Assembly (NCBI RefSeq): GCF_014651515.1
Contig: NZ_BMXA01000002.1
Coordinates: 717,501-781,500, forward strand
Origin: Arenicella chitinivorans
Lineage (GTDB): Bacteria > Pseudomonadota > Gammaproteobacteria > Arenicellales > Arenicellaceae
DNA: 64,000 nucleotides
Direction of reading: 5' to 3'
Part shown: positions 10,550 through 55,949 of the stretch, piece after piece
How the letters are laid out: every line of letters starts with the position of its first letter
How positions within the stretch are numbered: the stretch's first letter is position 1
Translations under genes and position numbers: made by a program
Notes under the pieces: model-generated
The model's input: only the letters and a program-made list of their open reading frames with translations
Database searches by the model: none
Told to the model about the DNA's origin: nothing

Positions 10550-10595
10550 GTCTGTTCTAAATCGAACTTGACGTCAAGTTCAATTTAGAACAGAC
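10550..10595. promoter_or_regulatory. 46-bp near-perfect palindrome, probable TetR operator
   Basis: Two 23-base arms match in inverted orientation at 22 of 23 positions. The core GAACTTGACGTCAAGTTC (10564-10581) is fully palindromic, and the outer arms are CTGTTCTAAAT and ATTTAGAACAG. The site lies between the divergent hydrolase gene (start 10515) and the TetR gene (start 10640). TTGACG reads from its centre on both strands, so -35 elements may be embedded. Binding by the adjacent TetR protein is inferred from position and symmetry. Confidence 0.8.
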
Positions 10596-10639
10596 TTGGC
10601 GATCACCAGCAATTGATCATAACGTTCGGAGTATAGATT

Positions 10640-11254
10640 GTGAAACCCATGCCAACTCAGGCACGCGCAATACGTAAGCGTGAGGCATTGCTCGATGCAG
10701 CGGAACGGGAGTTTGCTACTCGGGGTTTCGACGAGACGACCGCCAAGTCCATCGCCGCAGATGCTAAGGTCGCTGTTGGCACCTTTTATCAGTATTTTGA
10801 AAATAAAAACGATATCTTGCGAGAAATTGCCCGTCGTGGCCTAGAGTTGATCCGTGACCATCTGCCGCCATTTTCACTCACCGAATCAGATACGCTGAGT
10901 GCGCAGCGACTGCACCAATTGTTTGTGCGCGCCCTTGAGTTTGTGTATGCGTATCACGCCAATAAACCAGAACTGCATCAGGTGCTTGAACAACGCCGCA
11001 GTGTGGATGCGGAGCTTGGCGTGATTATGCGCGAGGGCGAAGATGCACTGCGCAATCACATACGGCTGTTCGTACAGACTTTCAATTTGCCATCACCGGA
11101 AATTGTCACGCATAACCTTTTCGCCATGGGAGAGGGGATCGTGCATCGACAGGTCTTCGACCAAAACACGTTGCCGCCAGAGCAGGTTATCGAGGTCGGC
11201 GCTTCGATGCTGACGGCATACTTCAACCAACTCAGCAACGTAATAGATCAATGA
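10640..11254 (+). CDS. TetR/AcrR-family transcriptional regulator
   Basis: A 204-residue regulator. The N-terminal TetR helix-turn-helix is clear at about residues 10-55 (AAEREFATRGFDETTAKSIA, then VAVGTFYQYFENKNDIL). The C-terminal ligand-binding half is helical and typical in length. The start is GTG at 10640; an ATG at 10649 is also possible. The stop overlaps the downstream amidohydrolase start by 4 bases (ATGA), so the two are translationally coupled. The palindrome just upstream is the likely operator, which would give autoregulation and control of the divergent hydrolase. Confidence 0.93.
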   Translation: MKPMPTQARAIRKREALLDAAEREFATRGFDETTAKSIAADAKVAVGTFYQYFENKNDILREIARRGLELIRDHLPPFSLTESDTLSAQRLHQLFVRALEFVYAYHANKPELHQVLEQRRSVDAELGVIMREGEDALRNHIRLFVQTFNLPSPEIVTHNLFAMGEGIVHRQVFDQNTLPPEQVIEVGASMLTAYFNQLSNVIDQ

Positions 11255-46149: not shown

Positions 46150-49100
46150 CTAGCCCTCATTCTTCTTGCCACTTTCTCGTCTACGTGTTGTTTCCGAAGC
46201 ATGTTTGCGCGCGACTTCGATTTTGCTGGTCAACTCCTGGATTCGTTCTAGGGTACGCAGATCGATGTCCATTTTTTTCTCCATGCTCAGAATTAATGGT
46301 TGAATGCTGTTTTCCATGGCGCTGGCGAGAGCATCCAAAGTGCTGACGATTTTGGGCGATGGTGTATTGACGACTTCGACCACCGGCGAAGGTTGTTCGC
46401 GCAATGATTTGCCAATTTGATCCATCGAGTGAATAAGTGCCGATAGCCGTTCCTTGGTTTCTTTGCCTTGTTGCTTGGACAAGCTCGAGATGAGTGTCGT
46501 CTGTTGTGCCGCTTGTGCTTCCAAATGAGACTGGGAAGAGGTTTCCAACGAAGTTTTTAACAAGCCCACGCCTTTAACCAGATCCATCACCTGATTCGCG
46601 ATACGAGTACCTGCGTCGGCATCGTCGCCACCCAGAGATTTGGTCCGACGAAAGTCCTCTTTAATTTGCTCCCAGCGGCGCGCTTGATCTTCGGTCATAT
46701 TGCCGCGTAACTCGGCCAGTTTAAGCAGGTTTTCCTCAGTGCCGTTGGTTAACAGTTGTGCTTCGCCTTGATAGTGATCTTCCATTAGCTGTAGTATTTC
46801 GGCGTCGTTCATTACGGCAGACACCTTCTCTGCCATCTTATTCATGTTTCGATAACTACCTTGGAGTTTGAAAGGCGGTTCTGTGCGATAACGATCGGCT
46901 TGGGCGGCCGACTTAATGTACTGCTGATTGACTTTTAAAATGAGTTCTTGGATTACGAATAATTTTTGCAGCACGTTGGTGATTTCATTTATTTCAGCTG
47001 CGCTGTATTGGTGACTCAGCTCGGTGGTGGCAATATTTTGTCCCTGAGCAATGCCCACAAGCTTATACAGATCGTTCATATCACGCGTGGCAAGTGGGGC
47101 TAAAACTGGATTTGATGTCAATGCATTTTCGATATAACTCAATGCAAACTGTGCTTCCATGCCGCCTAAGATGTCCCCTAAGTTGTATATGTCAGCACGA
47201 TTTGCAAGCATGTCTGGAACCTTAAATACTTCACCGGATTCGGTGTAAGGGTTACCAGCCATAACCACACAGAACTTTTTACCCCGCATGTCGTAGGTTT
47301 TGGTTTCGCCGCGCCACACGCCTTCGATTCGGCGTGTTCCATCACATAGTGAAATGTATTTTTGCAGAAACTCAGGATGGGTATGCTGGATGTCATCAAG
47401 GTACAACATAACGTTGTTACCCATCTCGAAAGCGAGGTTTATTTTCTCTAACTCTTGACGGGCGGTAGAGTTAGGGGCCTGCTCTGGATCAAGTGACGTA
47501 ACATCATGTCCAAGCGCAGGGCAGTTGATTTTCATGAAGATTAAACCCAGACGGTTTGCGACATATTCCATCAGAGTGGTTTTGCCGTATCCGGGCGGTG
47601 AAATCATCATCAGTAAGCCCATCAAGTCGGTGCGTTTGCTGTCGCCGACCGCCCCCATCTGCTTGGCCAGATTGTCGCCAATAATAGGCAAGTAAGACTC
47701 ATTCACGAGACGGTTGCGCACGAACGAGCTAAGGGGTTTAGCTTTGAATGAGTTCAGTTTCAGTCTCGCTCGCTCGCGCTTCATCAGCGCGCTACGTGAT
47801 TCAAGATACGCCAAATATTCAGGTACCACGTGTTGGTGATGGTGCGCCAATCGTTGCATGTACTCATCGATACTGAATTTAAGTGACTGCCCGTCAATGC
47901 GCGTATGGTCTCCGAGTAGGTCGTCGACCTGAAGTTGTAGTTTTTCGGAACATGGACGCAGCTCCAGTTTTGCGACTAAGTTGGCAGCTGCTTCCGGTAC
48001 AAACCGAAGTGTCGTTTTGTCGCCTTGATTGCGCGCAACAGCCTCAAGCCAATGCTTCGCGAGCGCCCATTGCTGGGCTGGTTCAGTTGCAAGGGTTTGT
48101 AATGATTCTTCGAGTGCGTGCCGTGAATCGGAATCAAGTACATGCTGGCAGTCGTCGATCAACGACTTGGCGTGCTGACTCTGAGCAAATCCCTTGTTTC
48201 CAAGTGCGAGTTCATCAACTAGGTATGCACTGACTCGGTTGGTGCTGGTTTGCGTCAACTTGATTGGGTGTGATGCTAAGAACGAATCGATTTCTCCAGC
48301 AAGCTCAGCGGACAGTTGTGCAAGGGCAGAATTGTCATTAAATAGGTGGTGTAAGCGCGCCGCCGATTGTGCTCTTTGCTGCCAATTTTGTCTTTTTGTT
48401 TCACCGTCATCAGGGTGAATCTGAGCGACTGATGCCCAAAATAGTTGCGCAATACCGCGCGCTTCCGGTTCGTATATCAAGGTCCCCGCTGCATCGATCG
48501 CAGGAAGTATGGCGTGTAAAATGCGCGCAGCATCGTGGTCATGAATCCCTTTCTGATAGCCATGTTTATACAATGGCGTTGAGAAGTCTCTTGCGATTTT
48601 AGTAAGTGCCCCTAAGTCTTGGGCGTCCACTAGGAGTTGCTGCATTGATAACTCGCCATTGCCACTTTGTGCAGTTTCGAGAATTAGATAGCTCAGATAT
48701 TCTGCGCGGTAGACTGTGTTGGTTTCGGATTCCTGAGACATCGCCCAAAATTGTTGGCTTTGGTGCAAGCGCTCATCTGCGACGGGTTCGTAGTAGTCGG
48801 TCCCGATAAGATGGAATGTAAGGCGGTCTTCCTTAGGAATGATGGTCAGATCGAGTTCTTGTTGATTGACACTGAATCTATGCTTAGGGCCCAGTTTGAT
48901 GACTTTGCCGCCATCTTCAAAAATATCTGTTTTATCGCGCAATGTTCGGATTGCTTGTTCTTTCAACCCCTTAAATCGAGACGCGATATCGTCAGCAGCG
49001 ACGTCGGCATCCAATTCACGCAGTTGTCCCACGATTTCTGTCGATTTGAGTACCAGCGCATCCGACGCGAAATAGGTATTGAGCTCATCAATCTCGGTCA

Positions 49101-51477
49101 ATCTGAGCGATCGTTTTTCGATGCTTGTGAGTATGCGCGCTGCGGAGTCGGCCAAAGTTTGAGCGCGACGTTGTCTAGCCTCCATTAGGCTTTGTTTGTG
49201 AGCTTCGAAGGCATCGTACAGCGCTTCGCGCTTTTCTAAAATGTCCGCTAAGAATTGTTCAAAACCACTGAATTGGCTTTCGAGGTCCTCGAGTTGCACC
49301 AGTAATTTGGCAAGTTGTTCGTCACATCTTTCCGGTGTGTCAGCAATGCCCAACGCATTGGTAATACTTTGTGAGAACAGTTTAAACTGGGCTGAAAACT
49401 GGGCGGTGGCTTCTTCCGAACCCAGACCTTTCTGTTTTTGCGAACCTTTGGCCTTAGTTTGATTTAAATTGGCGTAAACTTCTGAAATTCCATCGACAAT
49501 TCGGGTTCGTAGTGTCGTATCGTCAATCTTGAGTGTAGTGACCAGTTCAGATAACAAGTCCAGTTGCGCGGTAGTGTCATCGATGTCGGTGAGGACCGGG
49601 CGGATATCCGCGTTTGTCTCTGCGTTTTCGATTGCCGCTGCAAATTCAGTGGTGCGTTCCGTGTAGGTGGTCAGTGCTGATTCACGGCCAAGAAAATCAA
49701 CAGTGCTGGCTCCCAATGTCTGTTCTGCCTCAACCAGTTCAGCATCCATTTGCGCGAGGTCATCCTGATTAATGTATCGGTACTCGCGAATGGTCGCGAT
49801 GTGACCACGTTGTTTGCGAATGTCCGCGATCGCGCTAATAAACTGTGACGCGGTTTCCCATGTCGTTGTGGCGATGCGTGTGAGTAATGAGCGCTGTTGT
49901 GCTTTGGCCTCTTTAAGCGCCTGAGATGACTGCTTCTGAATGCTTTGGACTTTTTCGAATTCATCGATTACCAGTTCTGCAGTCTCTGCAATCTGGCGCA
50001 AATTTTTTGCGATGTCTGAATGGCGTGTGTCGTCCAGCCAATAGTGTTGGTCAAAGATTTTCTTGCTTACGGCATTGAGTTCTTCGTAATGACGCATCGA
50101 GACTTCATCGCTCTGAATTAGCTGGTTGATGGAATATAAGTCTGAAATTCCACGCACCAGCTCCGAGTTGCCAATGCGCCCCAGTTCGCTGGTGCTCTCG
50201 GGTTGTTGGCTCGCGTACTCGTCACTGATGTACGAAGTTTGCCAAACCTGCATGGGGTGAACTCGTGTTGGCTCCTGTTCCGCAGAGAAGACGATTAAGG
50301 TTCCATCATCGTACAGCGCATAGCCGTTGCTAAAGATTGGGTTTTGTAGGGACTTGGTGATTAAGTTGTAACTGAATAGGGCGACCTTGCCCGCCACGTC
50401 TTCGTAGAATACGAACAGCACGTCTTCGCCATTCGGTGAGCGAATGACCCGCTTGAATCGCAACCCATCAATGTCGCCAGGAAACGACTTGGTGTCCCCC
50501 GTTTCCAGATAGTAGCCACCTGGGAAGATAATGCCGTGGTCCTCTGGCAGTTGAATGCAGGAGTCACCAATGGCGTCGATGCGGTCGACATTTTCAGTTA
50601 AGGTGTTATACACCAAGTAGCGGGTTGTCGTTTCTTTGTACGGCGTAATCGCTAGCAGGACCAAATGTCCTACCAGCGCATAATTGATTTGGCCATCGTC
50701 GAGAGATTGGTTGGGTTCGTCTACCGGCTCGGAATATATCCCGAGACCGTCTTCTGTATTGTTCTCGATTTTGATCGTTAAGTCGCCACCAATGGTTTCG
50801 ACGAAAACTGTGTCAGCAATGTTGACGTGCGGATGTTTGCCGTGCACAAAGTGATCGCGATTGGTTTCGATCCACTCAAAGTCGTATTGATTCGGTAGCT
50901 GTATGTCTCGCTCGCCGCGATTGTCGATGTAGTCTAGCTGTTTGCCGTCAGGTGAGATAGACCACCTGAAAACTCGCAGGTCGTTCTCGCGTTCCCCAAC
51001 TTGGAAGCCAGCCAGAAGCTTGCCATTTTTATTGATCAGCTGAACTAATCGTGCCTCTTTGTAATAACGATAAAGTTCTTCAAAATCGCTTTTAAAGCGC
51101 GCTTCGAACAAAAAGGACTGGGTGATGTCGCTTTCAACCAGTTCCAGTTGATCTGCCTGGCGATCAAACGTAAACAGCGCGAAGACATCATTTACACGCG
51201 TGTCCTTTTTAAGTCCGATAAATACGTTGTAGCCGAACAATAGCTGGTCGCCGACCTGAACGATGTCTCGTGCGATGCAGTTATTCTCAGTGCGGATGCG
51301 TGTGCGTCCAATGGCGTTGAACTGAACGCCGCCGAACTCGGATAAGCGTTCGTTATTCAGAGTTTGTGTCAGCGTGCTAAGCGTGTGACCTTGTTCGGTT
51401 AGACGCTTGCGAATTATGTCGTACGCACCGGCTTGTGCGACGGCATTGTCGACAACTTGTGTATCGGTCTGCGGCAT
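46150..51477 (-). CDS. Giant AAA+ ATPase (DUF3686 type), membrane-stress operon
   Basis: A 1775-residue protein. The first 470 or so residues are beta-rich with DUF3686-like repeats. A coiled-coil region runs over about residues 480-950. A helical middle is followed by one AAA+ domain with Walker A SPPGYGKTTLMEYVA near residue 1295 and Walker B NVMLYLDDIQ near residue 1360. The C-terminal 250 residues are helical and coiled-coil. Relatives are often named DNA repair ATPase, but nothing here shows a DNA role. It is the last gene of the PspA-flotillin operon, 18 bases after the small TerB-like gene. By inference an ATP-driven remodeller acting on membrane-bound partners. Confidence 0.85.
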   Translation of the reverse strand: MPQTDTQVVDNAVAQAGAYDIIRKRLTEQGHTLSTLTQTLNNERLSEFGGVQFNAIGRTRIRTENNCIARDIVQVGDQLLFGYNVFIGLKKDTRVNDVFALFTFDRQADQLELVESDITQSFLFEARFKSDFEELYRYYKEARLVQLINKNGKLLAGFQVGERENDLRVFRWSISPDGKQLDYIDNRGERDIQLPNQYDFEWIETNRDHFVHGKHPHVNIADTVFVETIGGDLTIKIENNTEDGLGIYSEPVDEPNQSLDDGQINYALVGHLVLLAITPYKETTTRYLVYNTLTENVDRIDAIGDSCIQLPEDHGIIFPGGYYLETGDTKSFPGDIDGLRFKRVIRSPNGEDVLFVFYEDVAGKVALFSYNLITKSLQNPIFSNGYALYDDGTLIVFSAEQEPTRVHPMQVWQTSYISDEYASQQPESTSELGRIGNSELVRGISDLYSINQLIQSDEVSMRHYEELNAVSKKIFDQHYWLDDTRHSDIAKNLRQIAETAELVIDEFEKVQSIQKQSSQALKEAKAQQRSLLTRIATTTWETASQFISAIADIRKQRGHIATIREYRYINQDDLAQMDAELVEAEQTLGASTVDFLGRESALTTYTERTTEFAAAIENAETNADIRPVLTDIDDTTAQLDLLSELVTTLKIDDTTLRTRIVDGISEVYANLNQTKAKGSQKQKGLGSEEATAQFSAQFKLFSQSITNALGIADTPERCDEQLAKLLVQLEDLESQFSGFEQFLADILEKREALYDAFEAHKQSLMEARQRRAQTLADSAARILTSIEKRSLRLTEIDELNTYFASDALVLKSTEIVGQLRELDADVAADDIASRFKGLKEQAIRTLRDKTDIFEDGGKVIKLGPKHRFSVNQQELDLTIIPKEDRLTFHLIGTDYYEPVADERLHQSQQFWAMSQESETNTVYRAEYLSYLILETAQSGNGELSMQQLLVDAQDLGALTKIARDFSTPLYKHGYQKGIHDHDAARILHAILPAIDAAGTLIYEPEARGIAQLFWASVAQIHPDDGETKRQNWQQRAQSAARLHHLFNDNSALAQLSAELAGEIDSFLASHPIKLTQTSTNRVSAYLVDELALGNKGFAQSQHAKSLIDDCQHVLDSDSRHALEESLQTLATEPAQQWALAKHWLEAVARNQGDKTTLRFVPEAAANLVAKLELRPCSEKLQLQVDDLLGDHTRIDGQSLKFSIDEYMQRLAHHHQHVVPEYLAYLESRSALMKRERARLKLNSFKAKPLSSFVRNRLVNESYLPIIGDNLAKQMGAVGDSKRTDLMGLLMMISPPGYGKTTLMEYVANRLGLIFMKINCPALGHDVTSLDPEQAPNSTARQELEKINLAFEMGNNVMLYLDDIQHTHPEFLQKYISLCDGTRRIEGVWRGETKTYDMRGKKFCVVMAGNPYTESGEVFKVPDMLANRADIYNLGDILGGMEAQFALSYIENALTSNPVLAPLATRDMNDLYKLVGIAQGQNIATTELSHQYSAAEINEITNVLQKLFVIQELILKVNQQYIKSAAQADRYRTEPPFKLQGSYRNMNKMAEKVSAVMNDAEILQLMEDHYQGEAQLLTNGTEENLLKLAELRGNMTEDQARRWEQIKEDFRRTKSLGGDDADAGTRIANQVMDLVKGVGLLKTSLETSSQSHLEAQAAQQTTLISSLSKQQGKETKERLSALIHSMDQIGKSLREQPSPVVEVVNTPSPKIVSTLDALASAMENSIQPLILSMEKKMDIDLRTLERIQELTSKIEVARKHASETTRRRESGKKNEG

Positions 51478-51495
51478 GCTTGAATCCCTTTGCGG

Positions 51496-51753
51496 TTAGC
51501 CTTGATTGTTTACTTTGTCGAATAGTTCAGCCAGTTTGGCGCGTAGCGCAGGCGTGACTTCAGCCGGTTCAAGCCGCGCGATAATGTTTCGCAGTACACG
51601 AATTTCTTCCTGGTCAATCACGCTATCACGTTCTGCGATATCAATAATCGCTGTAAGTTCTCTGGCATCAAGTTTGCCGTCATTGGCAAATGCTTCAGCC
51701 GCCTTTAATGCCATTTCAACATGGTCGCGAGCGGAATCAGTTGAGTTGTTCAT
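51496..51753 (-). CDS. Small TerB-like helical protein
   Basis: An 85-residue acidic helical protein. LKAAEAFANDGKLDARELTAIIDIAERD and VIDQEEIRVLRNII (in pieces) resemble TerB-like domains. The start is placed at ATG 51753 (MNNSTDSARD), eight bases after AAGGAG; an ATG two codons upstream (51759) leaves only two bases. No activity is known. It lies between the flotillin and AAA+ genes and could act as an adaptor between them, an inference from position only. Confidence 0.75.
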   Translation of the reverse strand: MNNSTDSARDHVEMALKAAEAFANDGKLDARELTAIIDIAERDSVIDQEEIRVLRNIIARLEPAEVTPALRAKLAELFDKVNNQG

Positions 51754-51786
51754 TAACATTTCTCCTTCAGGTTGGTCGCGGGCAGT

Positions 51787-51815
51787 CGCCGAAGCCTGTG
51801 AAGCTGGCTTCGGCG
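51787..51815. repeat. Hairpin between flotillin and TerB-like genes
   Basis: CGCCGAAGCC pairs perfectly with GGCTTCGGCG, a 10-bp GC-rich stem with a nine-base loop, in the 78-base gap inside the operon. There is no T run downstream on the minus strand, so an mRNA stability or processing element fits better than a terminator. Confidence 0.55.
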
Positions 51816-51831
51816 CTCCATCATCAGATAA

Positions 51832-53682
51832 CTACTGAACTTCGTCAGGTTTGGGCATAAACTGAGAGAGTTGCCCCAATAGGTTTTGGATGGTATCGCT
51901 CTTATTAGTGAGGCCGTCGATCGCTTTGCCCATCGATAGTGACTTGGCGAAGGTGTCGAAGAAGTGCTCTTCACCACCGACGATGTCGATTTTTGCTTCG
52001 CGCAAGGCCGTGGCTAGCACTTCAGCATTCTCTTGCGATATCAGTTTACCGGCTTCTATAGAGGCCAATGTTTCTTTGAGCGCGGTTTCAAGCGTCATGC
52101 GGAACTCTTCATGAGATCGCGCGTCCTCGCTCATTGCATTCATGGCGGTGAACTTGTCGGTCAAACCTTCGGCCTCGGCTTTAAATTGTCGCAGTGTGAC
52201 TTCGGCTTCTGAGGTGCCCACTTGTAATTTGGCAGCGGCTTCGGACTCGCCTTTCTTGCGAATCACTTCGGCTTCTGAATCGCCCGTAGCACGAATAACC
52301 TCGGCCTGCGCTAGACCTTGGGCGGCTTCCTGTGCCTTAATGCCTTCTGCCAGTCGGATTTTAGCATTGGCGTCTTTATCTGCGGCTTCCAGATTGGCGC
52401 TGGCGAGCGTAGTGATCTCTACCGATTTGTGTTTGGCAGCAGTCTCGGCTGCTTCAGCTGCTTTCACTTCTCGCACCTTTTCTTCTTCGGCTAGCGCTTC
52501 AGCGGCTTTCACTTGAACTTGCTTGGCGCGATCAGCCTCAGAAACTTCGCGTACTTCGTTGATCTTCTCTTCCTCGATTGCAACGGTCTTATCAACCGCG
52601 ACGCGTTCGCGAATAATATCGGCGATGGCTTTCTTCTCACGTTCAACGTCTTTGTCGGCTTCGATGCGGGTCAGCTCGACTTCGCGGTCACTGTGGACCC
52701 GCTCCATGCGTTTGGTGCGGTCGACTTTTTCGACTTCGATCGCAACCGCGCGCTGGCGATTTTCATTGGCTATTTCAATTTCACGCTGTTGGTTCTCGGT
52801 TTGAATTGCTAGATCGCGCGCGACTTCGATAGAGGCGGTTTCTGCTTTGAGTCGTTCTTCTTCTTGAATCTTCAGAGTTTCAGCTTCCTCTCGGGCGATG
52901 ACTGTCGCCACTTCCCGTGCTTGTTTGGCCTCGGCATCTGCTTGTTGGCGCTCAAGTTCCAGCATGGCTTCACGAGCCTCTACATTTTTCTTAGTAATAG
53001 CCAATTCTTCGTCTTTCTCGAAGATATTGGTTTGAATGTTTTGGGTGGCAGTGAGTTCAGTAATTTTCTTGATGCCCTGTGAATCCAAAATATTGTGTGG
53101 ATCGAGTGCTGATTTTGGGGTTTGTTCAAGGTAGTCAATCGCCACGTCTTCGAGAGAGTAGCCGTTGAGGTCGCTTCCAATGGCGTCTACGATGGCGTCA
53201 CGAAAGCGTTGTCGGTCTTCAAATAGCTCCTCAAAGTCGACTTTCTTGCCCACTGTCTTAAGCGCTTCGGAAAATTTAGCAGCGAATAAGTCGTATACCG
53301 CATTGGTATCAGAGGCGCGTTGTGTGCCGACGCTTTTGGCGACGCGTAAAACGTCTTCTTCAGTCTCATTGACGCGTAGATAGAAGGCAACCGTGATATC
53401 GGCGCGCATATTATCTTTACAAATCAAGCCGTCTTTGCCGCGACGATCCACCTCGAGGGTGATGAGGGAGATTTTCATCAACTCCCTCATATGGATGATG
53501 GGTAAAACCATGCCGCCGGTGAAAGTCACCTTGGGCTTGGCGCGGAGTGTATTGATAATAAGCGCGGTGCCTTGTTCCACTTTGATGTAAAACTTCTTGA
53601 TAAGCATGAGCATGCCAAGAATAAAGACAATAAAGATGCCAACCCCGATCAGAAGTGGCGAGTAGACGGTGAGGTCTGCCAT
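51832..53682 (-). CDS. yqiK: Flotillin-family protein, YqiK type
   Basis: The 616-residue protein starts with a single membrane segment (about residues 8-28, LLIGVGIFIVFILGMLMLI). An SPFH/band-7 domain follows to about residue 190 (VEQGTALIINTLRAKPKVTF in part, ADITVAFYLRVNETEEDV). Then comes a long charged coiled coil rich in EAE/AEA repeats, as in bacterial flotillins that form membrane microdomain scaffolds. Pairing with the upstream YqiJ-like gene matches yqiJK of E. coli. The flotillin tail is probably cytoplasmic. Confidence 0.93.
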   Translation of the reverse strand: MADLTVYSPLLIGVGIFIVFILGMLMLIKKFYIKVEQGTALIINTLRAKPKVTFTGGMVLPIIHMRELMKISLITLEVDRRGKDGLICKDNMRADITVAFYLRVNETEEDVLRVAKSVGTQRASDTNAVYDLFAAKFSEALKTVGKKVDFEELFEDRQRFRDAIVDAIGSDLNGYSLEDVAIDYLEQTPKSALDPHNILDSQGIKKITELTATQNIQTNIFEKDEELAITKKNVEAREAMLELERQQADAEAKQAREVATVIAREEAETLKIQEEERLKAETASIEVARDLAIQTENQQREIEIANENRQRAVAIEVEKVDRTKRMERVHSDREVELTRIEADKDVEREKKAIADIIRERVAVDKTVAIEEEKINEVREVSEADRAKQVQVKAAEALAEEEKVREVKAAEAAETAAKHKSVEITTLASANLEAADKDANAKIRLAEGIKAQEAAQGLAQAEVIRATGDSEAEVIRKKGESEAAAKLQVGTSEAEVTLRQFKAEAEGLTDKFTAMNAMSEDARSHEEFRMTLETALKETLASIEAGKLISQENAEVLATALREAKIDIVGGEEHFFDTFAKSLSMGKAIDGLTNKSDTIQNLLGQLSQFMPKPDEVQ

Positions 53683-53722
53683 GACGTATTCCCTTTGTTA
53701 GTTGATTTGAGTGTTTAGTGAG

Positions 53723-54400
53723 TTACTCACCATTAAATTCAGATTTGGCGATGACGCGATATAAGTTGGTATTGCTTAGTTTTTCAATCACAACGACCTC
53801 ATCGCCTTTTTGAAATTCCTCATCACCGGTTGCGCGTACATTGAGCAAGATGCCAGCACCTCCATCGCTCATATAGGCTTCACCACGTTGTTGGTTCACC
53901 ACCGAAGAGCGCACCACGGCCTGTTGTCCGATAATATGTTTAGTTTCATCAATGTCGAGTTTGGCGAACAGCTTTCTAATCGGCTTGATTACCTGTGCGG
54001 TGGTCAGAACCGAGAGGTAAGTGGCAATAAAAAAAATGGCGATGCAAGCAATGAAATTTAGTAGCTTGGTTGGAACAATCTGCCCCGCGAAATAGCTTGA
54101 GTAGTAGCAAAGTATCCATCCAATCAGTGAGATAATGCTGAGTGTGATGGTGAGAGGAACACCACCTAGACCAAACTTAAGCAAGAGTCCGGCAATGCCC
54201 GTTTGTGCTTGTGCTGAGTCGGCAGCGTCAACATCGCCATCGTAGTCGAGATCCAAAATGTCGAGATCGACCATGCCCAATACAGCCACGATCCAGTAGA
54301 GTAGGCAGATGATCAACAAAAAGGTGTATATCACAGTTGGGAAAGAAGTCACCGTTTGATGAAACGGGTCCATGCTTTCATGTAAAAATATCGCGAACAT
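53723..54400 (-). CDS. yqiJ: NfeD/YqiJ-like membrane protein with OB-fold domain
   Basis: The 225-residue protein has an N-terminal membrane segment near residues 25-45, an acidic loop with LDLDYDGDVDAADS, two or three more segments at about residues 75-140, and a C-terminal OB-fold-like domain (IIGQQAVVRSSVVN, GDEVVVIEKLSNTNLYRVI). This is the YqiJ layout, the usual partner of YqiK flotillin. GGAGG lies directly upstream of the start. It is the third gene of the operon. Confidence 0.9.
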   Translation of the reverse strand: MFAIFLHESMDPFHQTVTSFPTVIYTFLLIICLLYWIVAVLGMVDLDILDLDYDGDVDAADSAQAQTGIAGLLLKFGLGGVPLTITLSIISLIGWILCYYSSYFAGQIVPTKLLNFIACIAIFFIATYLSVLTTAQVIKPIRKLFAKLDIDETKHIIGQQAVVRSSVVNQQRGEAYMSDGGAGILLNVRATGDEEFQKGDEVVVIEKLSNTNLYRVIAKSEFNGE

Positions 54401-54423
54401 CTATCCTCCAGTTTCGCAGGATT

Positions 54424-54463
54424 GGGGTTTTCGTCGGTGTTTTAACACATTTCTGAAAACCCC
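54424..54463. repeat. Hairpin between the PspA-like and YqiJ-like genes
   Basis: GGGGTTTTC (54424-54432) pairs with GAAAACCCC (54455-54463), and GTGTT with AACAC inside. The perfect outer stem sits in the 130-base gap between the second and third genes of the operon. It could tune downstream expression. Confidence 0.5.
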
Positions 54464-54530
54464 GGGGAGCTTGGCACTAGACTATATCAATGGCGTGCCA
54501 ATTCATGGCTGGTATTTTCAAACTGAATGA

Positions 54531-55223
54531 CTACTTTTTCTTTTGTTTAGCTTTGATGCGCTGCAGTACTTGATCCGCTGAATTCTCGCTGGTGATACCT
54601 GCGTCGCGAAGTTTTTGATCCAGCGATGAATTCGATGATTCTTCTGCCATTTCTGCCGCAGCGCTCATTTTCGCTGCATTCAGTTTTTGCTTCTCCTGAA
54701 TTCGCTCAAGTGAATCGAGTGCAGTGCGAAGCTTGGAATTGCTACCATTATGGCGTTCTGCGACCACGCGTTGCGCGCGCTGAACGGCCTCTGTTGCCTT
54801 GATAGTCTCGGTCTGCTGTTTCAGTTGTTTAATCTGGTGTTCTGCATTTTTCATCGAGTCTCTCAAGGCGTCTGCTTGAGACTTATATTGCTTGCCTGCT
54901 TCAGATTCCGCTTCGAGACGATCTTCGAAATTGGCGACACGCTCTGCAATTTCGACGGCCAACGACTCATCACCTTTTTCGAGCGCGCTTTCAATAAAAC
55001 CTTCGTGCTTCTTAATATCGGCTTTTAACGATGATGCGCGCTCCTCAGCTAGCTTTTGCTGAGCAATAAGCGATGCCAGTCCGTCCTTGGACTTGTTCAG
55101 CTCCTCTGATGCATCTCTAATCTCCTGGTCAAGAATTCGTAGCGCTTGCGCGTCGACAATTGCTTCACCAGCTTCGTTCACACCACCTCGAAGGGCAGTT
55201 ATCATTTTGGACCAAATATTCAT
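54531..55223 (-). CDS. yjfJ: PspA/IM30-family protein, YjfJ type
   Basis: The 230-residue protein is almost entirely helical with the PspA/IM30 start (MNIWSKMITALRGGVNEAGE) and long coiled coils (LKADIKKHEGFIESALEKGD and LRDSMKNAEHQIKQLKQQTE). PspA proteins assemble on stressed membranes, stop proton leakage and, in some bacteria, bind the PspF activator. It is second in the operon, 46 bases after the YjfI-type gene, the same pair as yjfI-yjfJ of E. coli. The lysine-rich C-terminus (IKAKQKKK) is notable. Confidence 0.93.
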   Translation of the reverse strand: MNIWSKMITALRGGVNEAGEAIVDAQALRILDQEIRDASEELNKSKDGLASLIAQQKLAEERASSLKADIKKHEGFIESALEKGDESLAVEIAERVANFEDRLEAESEAGKQYKSQADALRDSMKNAEHQIKQLKQQTETIKATEAVQRAQRVVAERHNGSNSKLRTALDSLERIQEKQKLNAAKMSAAAEMAEESSNSSLDQKLRDAGITSENSADQVLQRIKAKQKKK

Positions 55224-55269
55224 TGTGGACTCCGATCTATGGTTGTCAGTTCAGTGCCGTCCTGGCAGG

Positions 55270-55899
55270 TTAAATTTTTAAGAATGCTCTGAATGCTTCA
55301 GTTGCTTGGATAACGTTTTCCGCAAGGACTTCAATCTCGTGCACGACGTCATTAATGCTGGATGTGGCGCTGAGTGCGCCGAACATGTGGTAGTAGTCAC
55401 CATGTGTTTCATCGTGGTCAAGGCTAATTGTCGAGAGCGGTAAATACTTGTGTGTCTTTAACACATACTCGTTGAATTTGGCGGTGTCTTTGACATCGTC
55501 GGCCGAGAACAGAACCGCCTCAGCCAGTATCTGATCGCCACCTGCTGTGATGAAAATTGGTAGATCTCCGTATTCGTGCATGGCGATTACTATTGACGAG
55601 TCGATGCCATCAATGATCTCAATTGAGCAGCTGCCGTTGCTGAATGTGGGGCGATCTTTTAAGGCGGTAAAAAGGCTTTCTGTTGTCCAGCGGTGTGCGA
55701 CGCTATTGTTCATGTTTTTTTGTTCTCCTATGTCTAATCCTGTGCTGCCGTTCAGCTGAGAATAGCGAAGCATTTTCTCAACCTTGTTTAGCTGAGTGCC
55801 ATTCTCTGGAAGTATCCAGACTTCTTTTTTAACCAGGCCCTGTTCTCGCAATCTTTTGCGGTATTCTCGCTGATAGTCTGCTGATGTTTTTCTCTTCAT
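55270..55899 (-). CDS. yjfI: YjfI/DUF2170 protein with basic N-terminal extension
   Basis: The 209-residue protein has a DUF2170/YjfI domain from about residue 63 to the end (MHEYGDLPIFITAGGDQIL, THKYLPLSTISL, YYHMFGALSATSSINDVVHE). YjfI of E. coli is about 133 residues. The extra N-terminus begins KRKTSADYQREYRKRLREQG and VKKEVWILPENG, a strongly basic segment resembling short ribbon-helix-helix-type DNA-binding regions. The first ATG is apparently leaderless, seven bases after the -10. A second in-frame ATG (MNNSVAHRW, 55711) has AGGAG ten bases upstream, so two products are possible. First gene of the operon and possibly its own regulator. Confidence 0.87.
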   Translation of the reverse strand: MKRKTSADYQREYRKRLREQGLVKKEVWILPENGTQLNKVEKMLRYSQLNGSTGLDIGEQKNMNNSVAHRWTTESLFTALKDRPTFSNGSCSIEIIDGIDSSIVIAMHEYGDLPIFITAGGDQILAEAVLFSADDVKDTAKFNEYVLKTHKYLPLSTISLDHDETHGDYYHMFGALSATSSINDVVHEIEVLAENVIQATEAFRAFLKI

Positions 55900-55949
55900 G
55901 TAAATAGAATATATATTACATGTAAATCTGTCAATGGTGTTACATGTAA
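55894..55949 (-). promoter_or_regulatory. Operator-promoter region of the YjfI-PspA-flotillin-AAA+ operon
   Basis: On the minus strand a perfect -35 (TTGACA, 55929-55934) is followed after 17 bases by TATTCT (55906-55911). The palindrome TTACATGTAA occurs at 55916-55925, between the two boxes, and again at 55940-55949, upstream of the -35. A third, 8/10 match (55894-55903) overlaps the start codon. Spacings are 22 and 24 bases. The ATG is seven bases after the -10, so the transcript would be leaderless. Confidence 0.75.

What the first reader, a model, noticed from the sequence alone, without database searches (positions are those of the whole stretch)
46150..55899. Six-gene PspA-flotillin-AAA+ operon merging yjfIJ and yqiJK
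YjfI-type, PspA-type, YqiJ-type, YqiK-type flotillin, a small TerB-like protein and a 1775-residue AAA+ protein lie on one strand with short gaps. E. coli has the two pairs at separate loci and lacks this arrangement. Membrane-stress coat (PspA), microdomain scaffold (flotillin) and an ATPase in one unit suggest a membrane repair or remodelling machine.
Basis: partly seen in the sequence, partly recalled or inferred. Interest (0 to 1): 0.75.

Follow-up and report, generated by a model that had tools for sequence, protein, structure and literature searches.

The report
Membrane-stress operon that represses itself
This is an Arenicella-like bacterium's copy of an already described membrane-stress gene set (the Pseudomonas bac operon), but its first protein appears to carry an overlooked DNA-binding end that would switch the whole set off through matching DNA palindromes at its promoter.

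Summary
The six genes are real and at the stated places. The arrangement is already in print: P. aeruginosa bac operon (PMC10948618; six genes joined by RT-PCR) and the CesT/Tir-PspA + flotillin + AAA+ + YqiJ operon of Ravi et al. (PMC11237479). Five of the six genes line up with the operon of a Pseudomonas-like genome; the TerB-like gene is a rarer extra. What appears new is regulation. BacA/YjfI here has ~50 N-terminal residues that the BacA crystal (8q8o) and E. coli YjfI lack. Palindromes TTACATGTAA/TCACATGTGA lie just before bacA in 62 of 64 non-redundant loci with this long BacA (>=2 copies in 56), against about 2 (0.02) in shuffles; short YjfI genes have two in 0 of 47. In the window's genome the only two copies in 4.03 Mb flank the -35 box and fill the spacer of a TTGACA-N17-TATTCT promoter. 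Where strand residues K25/V27 are H/T or H/A, the operator is TCACGCGTGA (14 of 14 loci, one origin). I conclude that BacA is probably an autorepressor, which would explain the published rise of BacB-F in a bacA mutant. DNA binding is untested. The AAA+ domain looks nearer to MoxR-type ATPases than to classic AAA, weakly.

The parts
55270..55899 (-). bacA/yjfI, 209 aa: N-terminal DNA-binding-like domain plus DUF2170 (CesT/Tir-like chaperone fold)
55753..55899 (-). BacA residues 1-49: helix 6-19, extended 22-30 (holds VKKEVWI), helix 31-45; absent from crystal 8q8o and from E. coli YjfI
55940..55949 (.). operator 1, TTACATGTAA, 5 bp upstream of the -35 box
55916..55925 (.). operator 2, TTACATGTAA, lying wholly in the -35/-10 spacer
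55906..55934 (-). sigma70-like promoter TTGACA-N17-TATTCT
   Evidence: consensus match only
55894..55903 (.). possible partial third site TTACATGAAG over the start codon (2 mismatches)
   Evidence: sequence
54531..55223 (-). bacB, PspA/IM30 family, 230 aa
53723..54400 (-). bacC, YqiJ/short-NfeD-like membrane protein, 225 aa
   Evidence: family match weak
51832..53682 (-). bacD, YqiK-type flotillin, 616 aa
51496..51759 (-). 87-aa TerB-like accessory gene
   Evidence: weak
46150..51477 (-). 1775-aa DUF3686 + DUF7902 + AAA+ protein
46696..47724 (-). AAA+ domain, about residues 1252-1594; Walker A run SPPGYGKTTL, the two Walker B aspartates, sensor-1 N, R of NRAD and R of GSYRN are invariant in an alignment of 34 (motif names recalled)

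Best explanation
This is the bac operon of an Arenicella-like gammaproteobacterium. Shown: the genes, their order, the operators and their link to the long form of BacA. Inferred: BacA dimers grip the palindromes with the strand VKKEVWI of an N-terminal ribbon-type domain, cover the promoter and repress all six genes. More speculative: the C-terminal chaperone-like domain binds a partner, most likely PspA, whose stress-driven move to the membrane frees the promoter. The products (PspA coat, YqiJ/flotillin scaffold, large AAA+ ATPase) would then maintain or remodel membrane complexes.
For: Operators in 62 of 64 non-redundant long-BacA loci (>=2 in 56), against means of 2.0 and 0.02 in shuffles and 2 and 0 of 64 inside the coding region. 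Short YjfI loci: >=2 in 0 of 47, >=1 in 7 (shuffle mean 3.0), of which 6 are near-copies of one start-codon stretch and one, L183, is a long BacA that my filter missed. Three loci whose BacA frame lacks the N-terminus (L170, L221, L222) have no site. Window genome: 2 copies, both here. 14 other genomes: 26 of 48 copies at bacA, at least one in each. Changed strand goes with changed operator: H at 25 with TCACGCGTGA in 14 of 14, R.L with TCACATGTGA in 12 of 12; CTCACGCGTGAG occurs 16 times in 8 genomes, all within 350 bp of the bacA match. The N-terminus weakly resembles plasmid repression protein UrfF (29 of 31 members, best E 5.5e-5) and MazE-like antitoxin (16 of 31, best 0.0033). Published bacA mutant: BacB up 7.2-fold, BacC 7.9, BacD 13.5, PA14_16190 8.9, PA14_16200 6.1 (PMC10948618 passages). 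PspA follows bacA in 20 of 20 fetched loci, while C, D and F are found in 11; a strong BacA-BacB interaction is mentioned there as unpublished.
Against: No DNA-binding experiment. The fold is not a textbook ribbon-helix-helix: the AlphaFold2 monomer gives helix-extended-helix, block pLDDT 65-81, no strand; no PDB sequence relative of the N-terminus; family scores lie far under curated cut-offs (UrfF 15.3 bits against 100 for the window), and an unrelated ribosomal L25 model also reaches 0.0008 in 3 members. L189 has a long BacA and no site. The H-type change has one origin on the tree, and R.F and K.V loci carry either operator, so covariation is suggestive only. A -35-like match between paired sites is found in 20 of 56. 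PspA titration has no test here.
Confidence: 0.75

Rival explanations
1. BacA regulates after transcription or by partner binding alone, like T3SS chaperones ExsC or CesT; the palindromes serve another regulator.
For: The C-terminal domain has the CesT/ExsC/YbjN fold (8q8o Z 22.5, rmsd 1.1 over 138; ExsC Z 12.8, 2.6 over 125); Wallart et al. favour a chaperone/regulator reading.
Against: Operators go with the long BacA and shift with its strand residues; short YjfI genes have a different palindrome.
Confidence: 0.12
2. The operon is driven by sigma54, as proposed for P. aeruginosa.
For: Sequence reading in PMC10948618 (passage).
Against: The window's 120 bp upstream hold no GG and GC at sigma54 spacing; over 64 loci 5 score >=8 of 12 against 6.1% of shuffles, about 4 expected. 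P. aeruginosa itself was not identified here.
Confidence: 0.05
3. The unit is an ESCRT-like machine in which the AAA+ protein disassembles PspA polymers as Vps4 does. This concerns the products and can be true together with autorepression.
For: Gene neighbourhood; an ESCRT-like role is proposed in PMC11237479.
Against: Best structural neighbours are MoxR-type CbbQ (Z 17.0, rmsd 3.5 over 252) and NorQ (Z 16.4, 3.6 over 242); p97 and Cdc48 score about 13, spastin appears at Foldseek rank 45; Vps4 is not listed, which excludes nothing. Flotillin and YqiJ, not PspA, are its most constant neighbours.
Confidence: 0.2
4. Anti-phage or other defence system.
For: Large AAA+ protein; relatives on Pseudomonas plasmids.
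Against: PADLOC: only weak matches of PspA to long coiled-coil proteins (best E 0.0015), none for the other five.
Confidence: 0.03

Closest known systems
P. aeruginosa bac operon, bacABCDEF (PA14_16140-16200)
   Same: BacA-PspA-YqiJ/NfeD-flotillin-AAA+ in this order in Pseudomonas-like genome G508, whose BacA passes NCBI's BacA cut-off
   Different: In G508 a rhomboid-like gene (by eye) follows the AAA+ gene; the window has a TerB-like gene before it instead. PA14 itself is not held, so which PA14 gene is the AAA+ one was not checked
CesT/Tir-PspA + band-7/flotillin + AAA+/propeller + YqiJ operon of Ravi et al. 2024
   Same: Same families
   Different: Passages seen do not mention a DNA-binding end on the DUF2170 protein; 'terb' has 0 occurrences; a separate ribbon-helix-helix gene is mentioned in another operon group
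E. coli yjfIJ and yqiJK
   Same: Homologous proteins for A, B, D
   Different: Two loci; E. coli YjfI is 133 aa without the N-terminal domain; no BLAST match of C to YqiJ
MazE-like antitoxins / plasmid repression protein UrfF
   Same: Short N-terminal similarity; autorepressor logic (recalled)
   Different: Below cut-off; fused to a chaperone-like domain; no toxin in the operon

Membership tests
bac operon | BacA (DUF2170) first, PspA second | tested here: met
bac operon | YqiJ/NfeD-like, flotillin and AAA+ genes follow in order | tested here: met
   YqiJ-like by order and tblastn to G508, weak in Pfam
bac operon | same sixth gene as P. aeruginosa | tested here: inconclusive
   G508 has a rhomboid-like gene after AAA+ and no TerB-like hit; PA14 not held
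bac operon | single transcript, raised in a bacA mutant | not testable with these tools
   published for PA14
bac operon | sigma54 site upstream (proposed in print, not defining) | tested here: not met
ribbon-helix-helix / MazE-like (PF11455) | profile score over the curated cut-off | tested here: not met
   14 bits against 22
ribbon-helix-helix / MazE-like (PF11455) | strand-helix-helix order forming a swapped dimer (recalled) | tested here: inconclusive
   monomer model gives helix-extended-helix at moderate confidence; dimer not modelled
PspA/IM30 | PF04012 over cut-off across the protein | tested here: met
   152.1 bits, residues 2-228
YqiK-type flotillin | similarity to E. coli YqiK over most of the protein | tested here: met
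   31% over 461 columns, E 6e-44; no Pfam match
MoxR-type AAA+ | closest fold among AAA+ classes | tested here: inconclusive
   CbbQ/NorQ rows Z 15.2-17.0, next class (dynein) 14.1
Vps4-type AAA+ | classic AAA domain with MIT domain (recalled) | tested here: inconclusive
   no MIT hit in Pfam at E 0.1; Vps4 not among listed rows
TerB | PF05099 over cut-off | tested here: not met
   13.3 bits against 24.4; 6 of 8 relatives weakly, EF-hand models similar

The most novel reading that the evidence does not exclude
BacA is a one-protein stress switch: a DNA-binding repressor fused to a PspA-binding chaperone domain, so that PspA moving to damaged membrane pulls the repressor off its own promoter. 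This would be the reverse of the E. coli circuit, where PspA restrains the activator PspF (recalled). Operator specificity has been re-wired at least once together with two strand residues.
Probability: 0.35. Interest if true: 0.65.

Novelty: new member of a known kind. Interest (0 to 1): 0.45.

Why it matters
The operon is known, but how BacA lowers its expression is open: the published work solved a crystal without the N-terminal part and proposed sigma54 and chaperone-type control. A defined operator, a defined reading strand and a natural altered-specificity variant make that question testable with one gel shift and one reporter. It also gives a regulon test for a PspA-type stress response in many Gammaproteobacteria.

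Tried and rejected
Vps4-like reading of the AAA+ protein: not preferred, see rivals. Vps4 is absent from the listed VIA rows, which is no proof. Defence system: no real PADLOC support. sigma54 control: no enrichment. Sequence relatives of the BacA N-terminus in the PDB: none (one chance-level row, E 1.7). TerB-like protein in the PDB: EF-hand and other chance-level rows, best E 0.081.

Stand-alone ribbon-helix-helix genes beside short YjfI genes: L019 4604-4954 and L035 4766-5092 look so by eye, Pfam does not confirm.

The first script that sorted BacA loci used too narrow a motif and put 12 long BacA loci with the short ones; mended. Even then L183, a long BacA with one TCACATGTGA, stayed among the short and is not in the 64. 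The long-BacA set is not a random sample: loci are the best-scoring matches of each search, and 11 of 75 were dropped as near-copies. In one search one of 82 was dropped likewise; the tree and counts use all 82. L221 and L222 were fetched and left out because no strand was found. Of 49 short loci 47 were long enough for the control. Class names are by half-site share (TTACA or TCACG at least 50%, TCACA at least 75%). Search 45 mostly repeated 44 on the same genus.

Full report
WHAT IS THERE. Six minus-strand ORFs run from 55899 down to 46150 with gaps of 46, 130, 40, 72 and 18 bp. Upstream lies a 771-aa M14 peptidase gene 390 bp away; downstream a convergent gene without a Pfam match. The closest relatives of the AAA+ protein include Arenicella (70-71% identity), so the organism is Arenicella-like; two genomes of the same genus were searched.

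IDENTITY OF THE PARTS. A is DUF2170/YjfI and aligns from residue 68 to P. aeruginosa BacA crystal 8q8o (E 7.8e-35). B is PspA and matches E. coli YjfJ (E 1.8e-32). D matches E. coli YqiK (E 6e-44). C does not match E. coli YqiJ by BLAST and only weakly by Pfam, but it matches the third gene of Pseudomonas-like G508 (38%, E 9e-50); a 2026 paper calls PA14_16160 of P. aeruginosa a short NfeD (PMC13086221, passages). F has DUF3686, DUF7902 and a C-terminal AAA+ domain. E is TerB-like only weakly, and EF-hand models match about as well.

HOW COMMON. Of 344 relatives of F the 80 best were kept. Of these 80 loci 74 hold D, 71 C, 17 A, 17 B and 5 E within the fetched flank; all six are in 5, and in the window's order in 3 (L002, L004, L015). 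Some loci are cut by contig ends, and in L078 and L081 D lies about 7 kb or more from F. Seen from BacA: of 20 loci fetched around long BacA genes, A-B is in 20 and A-B-C-D-F in 11; the other 9 show no C, D or F hit (L207 is cut at 8.1 kb). So C-D-F is one module and A-B another.

ALREADY IN PRINT. Wallart et al. 2024 (PMC10948618; abstract, passages, sections 2.7.1 and 3.6 seen) show six bac genes joined by RT-PCR and a rise of the other five proteins by 6.1 to 13.5 fold in a bacA mutant. Ravi et al. 2024 (PMC11237479, passages) describe the CesT/Tir-PspA, flotillin, YqiJ and propeller-AAA+ combination. The 2026 SPFH paper (PMC13086221, passages) finds SPFH proteins of P. aeruginosa largely dispensable in the laboratory, with small biofilm effects, which speaks against a strong role of the flotillin under those conditions. 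DUF2170 appears in 3 papers of the library; DUF2170 with ribbon-helix-helix in one, where the latter is a separate gene. In the listings of searches, and in the passages I read, I saw no paper that gives BacA a DNA-binding domain or this operator; searches were listed only in part. Subscription papers and preprints are mostly not held.

THE OVERLOOKED PART. BacA residues 1-49 are absent from E. coli YjfI (133 aa) and from the crystal, which covers 69-209 of the model. Its chain numbers 37-177 suggest a reference sequence about 30 residues shorter than the 206-position NF050185 model, so the published reading may start late (inference). K4, Y9, R14, G21, K24, P31, L37, E41 and R45 are invariant in 41 sequences. 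AlphaFold2 gives helix 6-19, extended 22-30, helix 31-45 at moderate confidence. Profiles: UrfF in 29 of 31 members, MazE-like in 16 of 31, all below cut-off; scattered other families also appear.

OPERATORS. Two perfect TTACATGTAA sites, 24 bp apart, flank the -35 box and fill the spacer. They are the only copies in 4.03 Mb. Over 64 non-redundant long-BacA loci, 62 have at least one and 56 at least two sites (up to one mismatch) in 150 bp; 100 rounds of shuffling give means of 2.0 (maximum 6) and 0.02 (maximum 1) loci; the coding-region control gives 2 and 0. The two without are L146, which has CTCACGCGTGAG twice, and L189, which has none. Short YjfI loci: at least one in 7 of 47 (shuffle mean 3.0; six are near-copies of one stretch, one is a misfiled long BacA), at least two in 0. 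Start-to-start spacing is 21-25 bp in 36 of 56 pairs, with a second group of 14 at 44-52. Sigma70-like sites of 9 or more of 12 are in 48% of loci against 24% of shuffles. In 14 further genomes 26 of 48 copies lie at bacA; the pattern read backwards occurs 34 times, so the 22 others fit chance.

COVARIATION. At strand positions 25 and 27: K.V 36 of 40 mainly TTACA half-sites and 4 mainly TCACA; K.I 2 and 1; R.L 12 of 12 TCACA; R.F 7 TTACA, 5 TCACA, 1 none; H.T 13 of 13 and H.A 1 of 1 TCACG. L224 (H.A) carries one site of each kind. On a tree of the rest of the protein the H.T group needs one change and R.L two, so few independent events stand behind the counts. In 8 genomes with the H type, all 16 copies of CTCACGCGTGAG lie within 350 bp of the bacA match.

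THE AAA+ PROTEIN. In an alignment of 34 the run SPPGYGKTTL, two aspartates of Walker B, sensor-1 N, the R of NRAD and the R of GSYRN are invariant (motif names recalled), so it should be an active ATPase. The model (pLDDT 83.1) shows a two-strand hairpin before the sensor-1 strand. Best matches are CbbQ and NorQ, MoxR-type ATPases (E 4.9e-7; Z 17.0 and 16.4), then dynein, ClpB and p97 at Z about 13-14. This favours a MoxR-like complex remodeller over Vps4, weakly. The Pfam description 'ATPase involved in DNA repair' was not tested.

MECHANISM. Shown: long BacA and operators go together and shift together. Inferred: BacA binds them and represses the operon, in line with the published mutant. 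More speculative: PspA titrates BacA, because PspA follows long BacA in 20 of 20 loci, the DUF2170 domain has a partner-binding chaperone fold, and a BacA-BacB interaction is mentioned as unpublished. What the products do at the membrane is inferred from family membership only.

LIMITS.

Noticed in passing
loci of short YjfI genes, e.g. L035 2790 and 2824, L024 3938, L019 3385: Short YjfI genes (no N-terminal domain) often have another palindrome, GACATAATATGTC, upstream: 28 of 47 loci with <=2 mismatches against a shuffle mean of 0.4, two or more in 14 against 0.0. A different regulator probably serves them.
   Followed up: partly
L124, L125, L126 (pQBR103-type Pseudomonas megaplasmids): YjfI and PspA genes followed by DUF2491, DUF350, DUF1190 and glutathionylspermidine-synthase-type genes; on pQBR103 an SPFH gene and a 'DNA repair ATPase' gene follow, so both operon types meet on one plasmid.
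   Followed up: partly
L191 (reverse complement 10558-11058), L197 10786-11337, L019 13863-14444: A rhomboid-like gene follows the AAA+ gene in these loci (by eye); pQBR103 has an annotated rhomboid gene after pspA.
   Followed up: no
G000:C8:128012-128536 (L232): A second, weak PspA-family match in the window's genome (34.9 bits, cut-off 33.9).
   Followed up: no
PDB 8q8o: Chain numbering 37-177 against model residues 69-209 suggests that the deposited BacA sequence uses a later start codon than NF050185.
   Followed up: no
G876:C1:4606799: A third CTCACGCGTGAG copy about 340 bp upstream of the bacA match in one Pseudomonas-like genome.
   Followed up: no
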